Shown here piece after piece: positions 41,341 through 44,031 of a DNA stretch of 64,000 nucleotides (its first letter is position 1; each line of letters opens with the position of its first letter). Source of the stretch: Picosynechococcus sp. PCC 7003 (GTDB lineage Bacteria > Cyanobacteriota > Cyanobacteriia > Cyanobacteriales > MRBY01); the NCBI RefSeq assembly GCF_001693255.1, contig NZ_CP016474.1, positions 310,001 through 374,000 of the forward strand, given 5' to 3'. The position numbers and the translations under genes were made by a program. Below the pieces are notes generated by a model, which had not been told where the DNA came from, did not search any database, and was given only the letters and a program-made list of their open reading frames with translations.

Positions 41341-41448
41341 GGTGGGTGGATTCCTCTTATTTATCTCAAGAATTCTAAGTTGGTATCAATATTAACAAAA
41401 GTTTGTATCAATATTTTTTGTGGCCTGACCTTGGTGGGGCCATTGTAT

Positions 41449-41600
41449 GAACTACTCCAGCCTAAGAGGCATGGAGTTTCCGTCGTTTCATCGCCCCAAG
41501 TTGCCTCATGCTTCCGCAATCGGTAGAGCTTGGCGGCTCCGCGACTGAAGAGGCCAGTTCTTGACCCCTTGCCCAGGCTAAATTAACCTGAGCTGCATTG
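41449..41600 (-). ncRNA. Putative omega RNA (reRNA) overlapping the tnpB 3' end
   Basis: In IS200/IS605 elements the TnpB guide RNA comes from the 3' end of tnpB and the element right end. Here a stem (ACTCCA..GCCT, loop, AGGC..TGGAGT, 41454-41477) covers the tnpB stop codon and is followed by the element boundary, the expected scaffold end. The 5' limit is arbitrary. The RNA is inferred from family knowledge, not from its own sequence features. Confidence 0.35.
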
Positions 41601-42709
41601 ATATCTCTATCCTCCCTGTGGCCACAGTTTGGGTTTGAGCAAATATGTACCCTGTCTGCCAATGTCTTTGGCGTTAGCTCCCAACATTTAGCGCAACGCT
41701 GAGAGGGCTTAAGCGTCCTTGTCGGGGACTCCACATAAAATCCTCCTGCCTCTGCCAGCTTGTATTCCAGCATTGAACCAATCATGCCGAAGCCAACCGA
41801 GAGAATGGAGCGGTTAAGCCCTGTTTTTTGAGCTTTCCGTTTGCTGCCTTTTTTGGCTTTGCGGGTCATGTTTTTGACGTTTAACTGCTCACCTGCAACT
41901 AGGCTATTACCGCTGACTATGTTGCTTGTGATTTGATGCAGCCAATCTTCGCGCTGACGGGTAATTTTGCGTTGCCGCATTGATACCTGCCGTCTCGCTT
42001 TTTGCCACCGCCGCGATGCTTTAACTCGCTTATTTCGGTTTGGTGCACGCTTTCGTCTGAGTTGCTTGGATGCTTGCCTTACAGCAACCTCACCGACTTT
42101 GATAAAGCCAGGCTTTGATAGTTGCTCCCCTGTAGAAAGGGTAATCGCTTCCTTGCAACCTAAATCAATCCCCACAGACCCACCCTCGGTTTCCCGCTTG
42201 GGTTCACATTTGACGGTGATTGAGGCATACCACTTGCCCTGGCGGAAGAAAATTGTGCAAGTTGTTGGTTTTCCCCAGGTGCGAGCTTTCCCTCTCATTT
42301 GCATTCTGCCTAAGTGGCTCAACTTGAGAAAGCCATGCTGACCGTCTGTTTCTACCTGCCAACCTGCCCCGCAGGGATATGTCCACCCTCCATAGCGTCG
42401 AGATGCCTTGAACTTTGGATATCCCCCCAATCCCTTAAAAAATCGGTTGAAGGCAAAGTCCACTCGCTTTAACGTTGCCTGTAGGGCATGGGAACCCAGT
42501 TCCTTAAATTCTGGCCATACTTGCTTGAACCCTGGCAGACTATTTTGCTGCTCAAAGTAATCGACTGCATGGTTGAACTTTTGGTACTGGGTTTTACGGT
42601 TAGCAATCGCTGCGTTATACAAACTGCAATGTAAACGCCGCCAATAGTGCAGCTTTTTTTGCTGTTGGCGACTTGGATAGAGCCTGTAAGTGATTCGGCG
42701 TGTTACCAT
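41462..42709 (-). CDS. tnpB: RNA-guided nuclease TnpB (OrfB, IS200/IS605 family)
   Basis: A 415-aa protein with all parts present: an N-terminal helical/WED region, a split RuvC nuclease with D182 (SVGIDLGCKEAI), E274 (LVAGEQLNVKNM) and a DRD motif at about 367-369 (EDRDINAAQ), and a C4 zinc finger (C339, C342, C357, C362). TnpB proteins cut DNA guided by an RNA from the element end and help retain the element. The ATG at 42709 is chosen since it fits the usual MVTRRITYRLYPS beginning and its start codon lies within an inverted repeat shared with the divergent RHH gene. Confidence 0.93.
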   Translation of the reverse strand: MVTRRITYRLYPSRQQQKKLHYWRRLHCSLYNAAIANRKTQYQKFNHAVDYFEQQNSLPGFKQVWPEFKELGSHALQATLKRVDFAFNRFFKGLGGYPKFKASRRYGGWTYPCGAGWQVETDGQHGFLKLSHLGRMQMRGKARTWGKPTTCTIFFRQGKWYASITVKCEPKRETEGGSVGIDLGCKEAITLSTGEQLSKPGFIKVGEVAVRQASKQLRRKRAPNRNKRVKASRRWQKARRQVSMRQRKITRQREDWLHQITSNIVSGNSLVAGEQLNVKNMTRKAKKGSKRKAQKTGLNRSILSVGFGMIGSMLEYKLAEAGGFYVESPTRTLKPSQRCAKCWELTPKTLADRVHICSNPNCGHREDRDINAAQVNLAWARGQELASSVAEPPSSTDCGSMRQLGAMKRRKLHAS

Positions 42710-42720
42710 GCTCCTATGGT
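42705..42720. promoter_or_regulatory. Inverted repeat over the tnpB start codon
   Basis: ACCAT-N6-ATGGT, a perfect 5-bp-arm inverted repeat. The first arm contains the complement of the tnpB ATG (42707-42709). It is a candidate operator for the RHH protein encoded next door. Confidence 0.45.
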
Positions 42721-42725
42721 AGTCT

Positions 42726-42739
42726 ATTGTGCCCACAAT
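42726..42739. promoter_or_regulatory. Palindrome over the RHH gene start codon
   Basis: ATTGTG-CC-CACAAT is a perfect 6-2-6 palindrome whose second arm overlaps the ATG at 42738. Together with the repeat at 42705-42720 it brackets the 28-bp divergent region, consistent with autoregulation by the RHH product. Confidence 0.5.
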
Positions 42740-42875
42740 GAACAAGTCAGAAATACTAAAAATAAGGCTAACATCAGAGGATCTGGCAAGACTCAAGGCG
42801 TTCGCGTCCAACAAGGATGTCAGCATGGCTCAAATTATCAGAGAGTACATAAGGCGATTGCCTAAGCCTGATTGA
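42738..42875 (+). CDS. Ribbon-helix-helix (CopG/Arc-type) protein paired with TnpB
   Basis: A 45-aa protein, MNKSEILKIRLTSEDLARL through IIREYIRRLPKPD. The beta strand ILKIRL, helix SEDLARLKAFASNK and helix SMAQIIREYIRRL match the RHH fold of dimeric DNA-binding repressors. It diverges from tnpB with only 28 bp between the start codons, an arrangement seen in some tnpB elements of cyanobacteria. It probably represses both genes. A degenerate HIP1-like GGCGATTGCC lies near its 3' end. Confidence 0.8.
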   Translation: MNKSEILKIRLTSEDLARLKAFASNKDVSMAQIIREYIRRLPKPD

Positions 42876-42878
42876 TTT

Positions 42879-42940
42879 GGCTACTTCCGTTTCTCTTCAG
42901 TAGCCGCGCTATCCTTCCCTACCCTAAAGAGGGATAGGGA
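42879..42940. repeat. Left-end hairpins of the TnpB element
   Basis: GGCTACT..AGTAGCC (42879-42905) and TCCCTACCCT-AAAG-AGGGATAGGGA (42916-42940, 10-bp stem with one bulge). Subterminal hairpins are recognition structures in this IS family; the second could also terminate the RHH transcript. Confidence 0.5.
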
Positions 42941-42970
42941 CTGCCGCGCCCAAGTTCAGGAAACACTGAC

Positions 42971-44031
42971 CTAGCGTTGGGGGGGACGCAGAGGCCCATC
43001 GGTTTGTACAGGGATCAAGATACTGTTTAGTTTGCGCAGCTGCTCTGCGGTGCCCATACAAATAAAAAGTCCCCAGATAGGAGTAGCGTCTCTCCCGTTG
43101 GCCCAGGAATGAGACTGCCATCTTGACGACGAATAGCGAGGACGAGGGCACCGGACTGCACCCTAAGTCGGGCTTCGCTGAGGCTTTTGCCAATATAATC
43201 GCCACAATTGCTATCGACACGGATTTCTTCGAGGTAGTAAGAGCGTTCTGTTCCGGTGAGAATGCCATCAACAAAGTCCATGACTTGGGGTCTGAGGGCC
43301 GCAGCGGCCAGGCGACGCCCCCCGGTAATGTAGGGGGACACAACGGCATCGGCCCCGGCACGGCGTAATTTTTCGACGGCTTCTTCGGTACTGGCCCTGG
43401 CGATCGCCCGAATTTTTGGGTTTAATGTTTTCGCCGAAAGCACTGTGTAGAGATTTTCTGCGTCGGAACTGAGGGCTGCCACCAAACAAGTTGCCCGGTC
43501 AATTTTCGCTTCATGGAGATATTGATCGAGGGTGGCATCCCCTTGAATGCAGATATAACCTTGGTCGCGGGCGGCTTCAATAATTTCCGGTTCGAGATCG
43601 ACAACTACAAAAGGAATCCCCTCGGCGACAAATTCCCGGGCGACCTGCTGTCCGGTACGACCGAGGCCACAGACAATGTAGTGGTTATTAAGACGACTGA
43701 TTTGCTGCTGGTACTGCTTCAATTTTTTTACCTCCTGGAAATAGCCGCTAATCATTGCTTCGATAAAGCGGTTCACGATATAACCGACTGCGATTAAACC
43801 CAAAAAAATCAGAATGATCGTAAACACACGGGAGCGATCGCCGAGGGGATAGGTTTCCCCAAAGCCAACGGTCGAGAGGGTGATCATCGTCATATAGGCT
43901 GCATCCACCCATGACCACTGCTCCACGACAATAAACCAACTCGTCCCCAGCAGAAACAGCGCCACCAGCATCAGCAAGCCTAGTTGCAGCTGCCCCCTGA
44001 GGCGCCTATATTTTTGCTCAATGCTATACAC
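42971..44031 (-). pseudogene. Potassium channel with RCK domains, C-terminal frameshift
   Basis: A two-helix potassium channel with selectivity filter TVGFGE, followed by an RCK-N (TrkA-N) domain (YIVCGLGRTGQQVAREF) and an RCK-C domain. The uninterrupted frame covers 43027-44031 (334 aa) and ends in ..GDFLFVWAPQSSCAN. One base shifted, the next frame reads ICMGTAEQLRKLNSIL and runs to a stop at 42971, which is the expected RCK-C ending. The slip is at an A5 run (43064-43068 on the plus strand; six would restore the frame). The tail lost is about 35 residues; the protein may still function. The IS lies right after it. Confidence 0.85.

What the first reader, a model, noticed from the sequence alone, without database searches (positions are those of the whole stretch)
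42705..42875. Tiny RHH gene divergent from tnpB with an inverted repeat over each start codon
A 45-aa ribbon-helix-helix protein faces an intact TnpB with 28 bp between start codons. ACCAT-N6-ATGGT covers the tnpB ATG and ATTGTG-CC-CACAAT covers the RHH ATG. This looks like a compact switch in which a self-encoded repressor silences both itself and an RNA-guided nuclease. The two half-sites differ, so there may be two affinities or two factors.
Basis: partly seen in the sequence, partly recalled or inferred. Interest (0 to 1): 0.75.

Follow-up and report, generated by a model that had tools for sequence, protein, structure and literature searches.

The report
Mini-repressor gene paired with TnpB nuclease
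Many cyanobacterial jumping genes that carry the RNA-guided nuclease TnpB replace their transposase gene with a 45-residue DNA-binding protein placed to switch off the nuclease and its guide RNA, and some keep only that protein and the guide RNA, which suggests these elements control their own RNA-guided cutting.

Summary
The genes are as described: a 45-aa RHH protein (42738-42875, +) lies 28 bp from the start of an intact TnpB (41462-42709, -), both inside one 1507-bp IS605-type element (41447-42953). The genome holds seven RHH copies. The two inverted repeats are real here but not conserved: TACCAT-N6-ATGGTA occurs in 2 of 7 copies, ATTGTG-CC-CACAAT in 4 of 7. What recurs is a tandem direct repeat about one helical turn apart, beside the RHH start codon and overlapping a tnpB promoter whose -35 often covers that codon. 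Over 32 non-redundant RHH-tnpB loci the 11-bp periodicity has z=7.2; it is absent in 31 TnpA-tnpB loci of the same TnpB clade. I found 50 RHH-tnpB loci in 24 genera, always divergent. RHH occupies the slot otherwise held by transposase TnpA and exchanges with it repeatedly. RHH genes are under purifying selection (median dN/dS 0.11); full-length partner TnpBs keep the RuvC D-E-D triad. Many 'solo' RHHs are RHH + promoter + non-coding RNA elements; in three families the RNA's 3' end matches sequence downstream of tnpB (omegaRNA/right end). Best reading: an element-borne autorepressor of the tnpB/omegaRNA promoter, analogous to CvkR/Arc beside Cas12k. Binding is untested.

The parts
41447..42953 (.). 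whole element, 1507 bp, IS200/IS605 type, no tnpA
   Evidence: shared ends of all copies: left end follows TGAAC, right end closes with GGAGTAGTTCAT followed by variable sequence
42954..42958 (-). TGAAC target motif bordering the left end (likely TAM; by analogy)
   Evidence: TGAAC borders the left end in the full-length chromosomal copies and the short elements
42738..42875 (+). RHH gene, 45 aa (MNKSEILKIRLTSEDLARLKAFASNKDVSMAQIIREYIRRLPKPD)
   Evidence: Pfam RHH_1 at gathering score; AlphaFold pLDDT 91, two helices after an extended N-terminus; Foldseek ranks RHH proteins (antitoxin DNA-binding domains, CopG, Arc), E>0.1; family dN/dS median 0.11
41462..42709 (-). tnpB, 415 aa, RuvC D-E-D intact
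   Evidence: Pfam OrfB_IS605, Cas12f1-like_TNB, HTH_OrfB_IS605; catalytic residues aligned
42714..42730 (-). putative operator: direct repeats ACAATAG (42724-42730) and ACCATAG (42714-42720), spacing 10 bp
   Evidence: 6 of 7 match, shuffle p=0.027 in this copy; class supported across 32 non-redundant loci; only at the seven RHH copies in the genome
42716..42745 (-). putative tnpB promoter: -35 TTGTTC (42740-42745, covers part of the RHH start codon), 18-bp spacer, -10 TACCAT (42716-42721; TACAAT in 5 of 7 copies)
   Evidence: weak in this copy (consensus scan finds none); position inferred from relatives, where 20 of 30 loci have a >=9/12 promoter, 13 with the -35 overlapping the RHH start codon at one fixed position
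   Evidence: present in 2 of 7 copies only
   Evidence: present in 4 of 7 copies
42876..42953 (-). left end with two imperfect hairpins
   Evidence: conserved in RHH copies and, in part, in the TnpA element L007 and the short elements
41447..41610 (-). right end plus 3' end of tnpB, the expected omegaRNA region, guide taken from sequence beyond 41447
   Evidence: this stretch alone, with the left end, is kept in the ~285-bp short elements; omegaRNA role by analogy

Best explanation
The RHH protein is an element-encoded transcriptional repressor. RHH dimers bind side by side on two repeats one helical turn apart beside the RHH start codon. This blocks the divergent promoter that makes the tnpB mRNA, from whose 3' end the omegaRNA is expected to be cut, and, because the sites abut the RHH start codon, probably limits RHH itself. 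The element thus caps its own RNA-guided nuclease and guide RNA. RHH sits where autonomous relatives carry the transposase TnpA, so RHH elements probably move by TnpA supplied in trans. Some relatives have lost tnpB and keep RHH plus the RNA. Shown by sequence: architecture, recurrence, slot exchange, repeats, selection, shared RNA 3' ends. Inferred: binding, repression, autoregulation, trans mobilisation.
For: (1) 50 RHH-tnpB loci in 32 genomes, 24 genera, 14 families; RHH always divergent when adjacent. (2) Tandem-repeat signal at 11 bp: 0.413 vs about 0.28 expected, z=7.2, and within-locus pairing beats cross-locus pairing (0.413 vs 0.291, p=5e-5), so it is not just shared promoter consensus; absent in TnpA-tnpB controls (z=-1.1). 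16 of 32 loci have a >=6/7 repeat, shuffles mean 2.9. Repeat sequence differs between RHH subtypes (GTACAA, GTAGGC, TGCTATA, TCGTTA). (3) Promoter pointing at tnpB in 20 of 30 loci (5.1 expected), -35 starting exactly 7 nt from the RHH start codon in 13. (4) RHH dN/dS median 0.11; the syntenic solo pair L028/L029 has 9 differences, all synonymous. (5) RHH/TnpA exchange in one slot: 8 changes on the TnpB tree, at least 6 forced by supported branches. (6) The sites occur only at the seven RHH copies in the genome. (7) CvkR, a repressor divergent from cas12k with a mapped site in the promoter, and Arc RHH genes at the same place (PMC9938897; layout seen here).
Against: No binding or expression data. 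The window copy is one of the weaker examples: its tnpB promoter is not found by a consensus scan and its repeats are 10, not 11, bp apart. About half of the RHH-tnpB loci have no clear (>=6/7) repeat, and one clade (L088 group) has an inverted arrangement instead. The RHH-sense promoter is not visible (2 loci vs 5 expected), so autoregulation is positional inference.
Confidence: 0.8

Rival explanations
1. RHH is an accessory DNA-binding protein for transposition (as RHH proteins accompany HUH relaxases), helping a TnpA supplied in trans recognise or bend the element ends.
For: RHH occupies the tnpA slot and occurs on TnpA-less elements that still move; Pfam NikA-like at weak score; kept in mobile tnpB-less elements.
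Against: The repeated sites lie in the tnpB promoter, not at the ends; in the host genome six ~285-bp short elements with the same ends moved without RHH; syntenic solo RHHs persist where no mobility is evident.
Confidence: 0.08
2. RHH is a type II antitoxin that binds and inhibits TnpB protein, with promoter autoregulation as a side effect.
For: CopG/RelB-type antitoxins are among the nearest named models, all below cut-offs; TnpB is potentially toxic.
Against: Only about 45 aa with no toxin-binding extension; kept under selection in elements without tnpB; unrelated RHH subtypes pair with nearly identical TnpBs (93% identity, L137 vs window), odd for a specific protein-protein antitoxin.
Confidence: 0.05
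3. RHH is a passenger whose protein function is unrelated to tnpB; the pairing is an accident of the left-end slot.
For: Solo RHH genes exist, some syntenic in one family.
Against: The periodic repeat and the tnpB-directed promoter recur across many TnpB lineages; many solos keep the same promoter and an associated RNA.
Confidence: 0.04

Closest known systems
CvkR and Arc_1/Arc_2 regulators of type V-K CRISPR-associated transposons (PMC9938897)
   Same: small DNA-binding regulator, reverse orientation just upstream of the effector gene (Cas12k), in cyanobacteria; CvkR represses cas12k and its site overlaps the promoter; Arc proteins are also RHH; layout seen here in Cas12k loci
   Different: effector is TnpB in a 1.5-kb IS605-type element, not Cas12k in a Tn7-like element; the Arc proteins seen here (MAEETREVRGRLPKDLK...) do not visibly resemble these RHHs in sequence beyond the fold; sites here are mostly direct repeats, CvkR's is an inverted repeat
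IS200/IS605 elements with divergent tnpA and tnpB; IS1341 group (tnpB without tnpA)
   Same: TnpB, hairpin ends, right-end guide layout; L007 in this genome is a tnpA+tnpB relative
   Different: tnpA replaced by an RHH gene
CopG/Arc ribbon-helix-helix repressors
   Same: RHH fold, about 45 aa; putative sites side by side about one helical turn apart
   Different: encoded in a TnpB element; no sequence match to any solved structure at E<=0.01
TldR (nuclease-dead TnpB-like RNA-guided repressors, PMC13418256)
   Same: TnpB-family locus with a regulatory role
   Different: here TnpB keeps its catalytic triad and repression is assigned to a separate protein

Membership tests
IS200/IS605 family | TnpB with RuvC and zinc-ribbon domains | tested here: met
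   Pfam hits above cut-off; D-E-D intact
IS200/IS605 family | Y1 HUH transposase TnpA encoded | tested here: not met
   absent from this element; present in relative L007 with the same right end and a similar left end; so a TnpA-less (IS1341-like) derivative
IS200/IS605 family | subterminal hairpins and fixed flanking target, multiple copies with shared ends | tested here: met
RHH (CopG/Arc) DNA-binding proteins | RHH domain by sequence and fold | tested here: met
   PF01402 exactly at gathering score 20.5; helices at 13-26 and 30-39; top Foldseek hits are RHH proteins though E>0.1
RHH (CopG/Arc) DNA-binding proteins | binds operator DNA as dimers | not testable with these tools
   needs gel shift or footprint
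CvkR/Arc regulators of V-K CAST | neighbour is cas12k in a Tn7-like element | tested here: not met
   neighbour is tnpB; no Cas12k match in the own genome
CvkR/Arc regulators of V-K CAST | small regulator divergent from the RNA-guided effector | tested here: met
type II toxin-antitoxin | antitoxin always with its toxin | tested here: not met
   RHH kept in tnpB-less elements
TldR | inactivated RuvC site | tested here: not met
   all full-length TnpBs aligned (RHH partners plus L007) keep D, E, D
omegaRNA (for the RHH-RNA elements) | 3' end shared with tnpB elements, conserved structure, variable guide next to the right end | tested here: met
   family X1: (20 of 39 pairs with compensatory change); X2 by one tnpB locus; X3 by one short match; X4-X6 by layout and end motifs only

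The most novel reading that the evidence does not exclude
RHH plus omegaRNA is a distinct module that can exist without the nuclease: repressor-controlled, guide-RNA-only mobile elements that feed different guides to TnpBs encoded elsewhere in the cell, with RHH setting guide and nuclease dosage and giving resident elements repressor immunity against incoming relatives. The Arc-Cas12k arrangement in V-K transposons would then be a parallel to, or descend from, this RHH-TnpB arrangement.
Probability: 0.35. Interest if true: 0.88.

Novelty: new variant of a known kind. Interest (0 to 1): 0.72.

Why it matters
How TnpB elements keep their own nuclease in check is little explored; in the library searched no paper describes a dedicated repressor for TnpB. 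If right, TnpB elements in many cyanobacterial genera carry a built-in switch, parallel to the one known for Cas12k, and guide-RNA-only elements carry the same switch. It is directly testable with a 45-aa protein and a 40-bp DNA, and could give a compact off-switch for TnpB tools.

Tried and rejected
Inverted repeats as the conserved operator: rejected. RHH ORF as chance: rejected (dN/dS and recurrence). Shared promoter consensus as the sole source of the 11-bp periodicity: rejected by cross-locus pairing and the TnpA control. Homology of this RHH to the CAST Arc proteins: no sequence resemblance seen by eye (not tested by a profile search). Rfam on the window region and on 20 solo loci: nothing but one tRNA. 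PDB sequence search with the RHH profile: no hits. Plasmid collection: one distant RHH. Genome-contig scan: titles almost all cyanobacterial; the Gracilibacteria contigs match contigs of genome G344 of this order by length, and one Tatlockia MAG was not followed.

Full report
Observation. The 45-aa RHH gene (42738-42875, +) and the 415-aa tnpB (41462-42709, -) are as described, 28 bp apart. They lie in one element, 41447-42953, whose ends are shared by all copies: the left end follows TGAAC and the right end closes with GGAGTAGTTCAT, followed by sequence that differs in every copy. The genome (3.35 Mb) holds seven copies with RHH (six with intact tnpB, one with broken tnpB but intact RHH), one copy on contig C3 (L007, 85% TnpB identity) with a TnpA transposase in place of RHH, and at least six short elements of about 285 bp with both ends, roughly the last 50 codons of tnpB and neither RHH nor the rest of tnpB.

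The inverted repeats. Both exist here, but ACCAT-N6-ATGGT is in two of seven copies and ATTGTG-CC-CACAAT in four. The first arises from one A-to-C change that also changes the putative tnpB -10 from TACAAT to TACCAT. They are therefore not the conserved regulatory element.

Recurrence. Searching 391 genomes of the same order, this RHH family occurs in 111 genomes, 67 of 150 genera. Of about 110 loci read, RHH lies divergent and next to a tnpB in dozens, with no adjacent co-directional case. Starting from tnpB instead (89 loci of the same TnpB clade), the slot upstream holds a divergent TnpA in 49, a divergent RHH in 13, neither in 27 (the 13 overlap partly with the first set, and three of the 27 have weak or distant hits: L144, L162, L225). 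In total 50 RHH-tnpB loci, 32 genomes, 24 genera, 14 families. On a tree of 35 full-length TnpBs the RHH label needs 8 changes, at least 6 forced by supported branches (part of the RHH rows were chosen because they have RHH). The RHHs are of several subtypes: a same-genus TnpB 93% identical to the window's carries a different RHH (L137) with a different intergenic sequence. All full-length RHH-partner TnpBs aligned, and L007, keep D-E-D.

Operator. Aligned on the RHH start codon, the upstream sequence shows direct repeats about one helical turn apart (for example L030 TGTACAA-N4-TGTACAA). Over 32 non-redundant loci the match frequency at offset 11 is 0.413 (z=7.2), other offsets near background; pairing halves from the same locus beats pairing across loci (0.413 vs 0.291, p=5e-5). 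In 31 TnpA-tnpB loci of the same clade there is no such signal (z=-1.1). RHH genes without tnpB show it at 12 bp (z=6.1). 16 of 32 loci have a 6-of-7 or better repeat at 10-12 bp against 2.9 in shuffles. The L088 clade instead has an inverted TTGTATC/GATACAA (seen by eye). A promoter reading toward tnpB is present in 20 of 30 loci (5.1 expected), its -35 starting exactly 7 nt from the RHH start codon in 13; no promoter for RHH itself is visible. In the own genome the site occurs only at the seven RHH copies. The offsets, windows and cut-offs were chosen after looking at the sequences, so the z-scores are descriptive; the TnpA set is the fairest control.

Selection. Pairwise dN/dS between related RHHs has median 0.11 in RHH-tnpB loci and in solos. 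Pairs were filtered for amino-acid identity above 60%, which biases this low, but closely related pairs (L088 group) also give 0.04-0.18. The syntenic pair L028/L029, where tnpB is gone except for what looks like its first codons after the operator, differs at 9 sites, all synonymous.

RHH with RNA and no tnpB. Many 'solo' RHHs keep the outward promoter (19 of 47 with the -35 at the same position), and beyond it lies 250-430 nt of conserved non-coding sequence at different genomic sites. In family X1 the last 70-130 nt match the sequence around and downstream of the tnpB stop in RHH-tnpB elements (about 70-87% identity, E down to 4e-22). In twelve aligned sequences 20 of 39 predicted pairs show compensatory change; the sequence just beyond the right end differs in each. 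Family X2's 3' part lies downstream of a tnpB in L323, and X2 RNA occurs in up to 40 copies per genome, mostly without a detectable RHH. X3 shares a short 3' match with L019 of the own genome, itself a second RHH-tnpB pair. X4-X6 are assigned by layout and end motifs only. Altogether 37 such loci in 20 genera. That these RNAs are omegaRNAs is inferred; TnpB cutting omegaRNA from its own mRNA is from PMC10278001 (title and abstract).

Mechanism and comparison. The best-supported mechanism is an element-borne repressor of the promoter for tnpB mRNA and omegaRNA. The closest known case is the divergent CvkR or Arc (RHH) regulator of cas12k (PMC9938897), seen here in Cas12k loci: same layout and logic, different effector and element, no evident sequence kinship of the RHHs. 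I found no paper on a TnpB-linked RHH in the library; subscription journals and preprints are mostly not held, so absence there is weak. Nothing here measures binding, transcription or mobility.

Noticed in passing
L040, L071, L073, L081, L082, L084, L087, L103 (X1); L090, L095, L110, L114 (X2); L068, L101, L122, L124, L133 (X3); L034, L037, L051, L054, L060, L066, L080, L102 (X4); L120, L128, L130, L135 (X5); L096, L108 (X6): Families of mobile elements made of an RHH gene and a divergent conserved non-coding RNA, with no Rfam match in the loci scanned; X1-X3 share 3' ends with tnpB elements.
   Followed up: partly
G298, G251, G315, G327 (loci L311-L338): X2-type RNA elements in 13-40 copies per genome, mostly without a detectable RHH gene.
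   Followed up: partly
own genome, L011-L016: Six ~285-bp short elements with both ends and the tnpB 3' end (likely omegaRNA region) but no full tnpB and no RHH.
   Followed up: partly
own genome, L019:1338-2555: A second, distantly related TnpB family, with a stop inside tnpB, paired divergently with a different RHH (MKKRLDFRIEQYEFELLEEYCNAVGRTKTDVLRELIRSLKSKKKPS).
   Followed up: partly
own genome, L007 (contig C3): Relative of the window element with TnpA divergent from tnpB in the RHH slot; the likely source of transposase for the RHH copies.
   Followed up: partly
L061/L139: The operator plus start of RHH is duplicated in tandem upstream of tnpB (two near-identical promoter-operator units).
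   Followed up: no
L035-L049: Solo RHH genes (MARDYMLRIRLN..) in related genomes, several in the same gene neighbourhood with conserved upstream sequence; look vertically inherited.
   Followed up: partly
window 43027-44031: Gene beside the insertion is a potassium-channel/TrkA-type protein.
   Followed up: no
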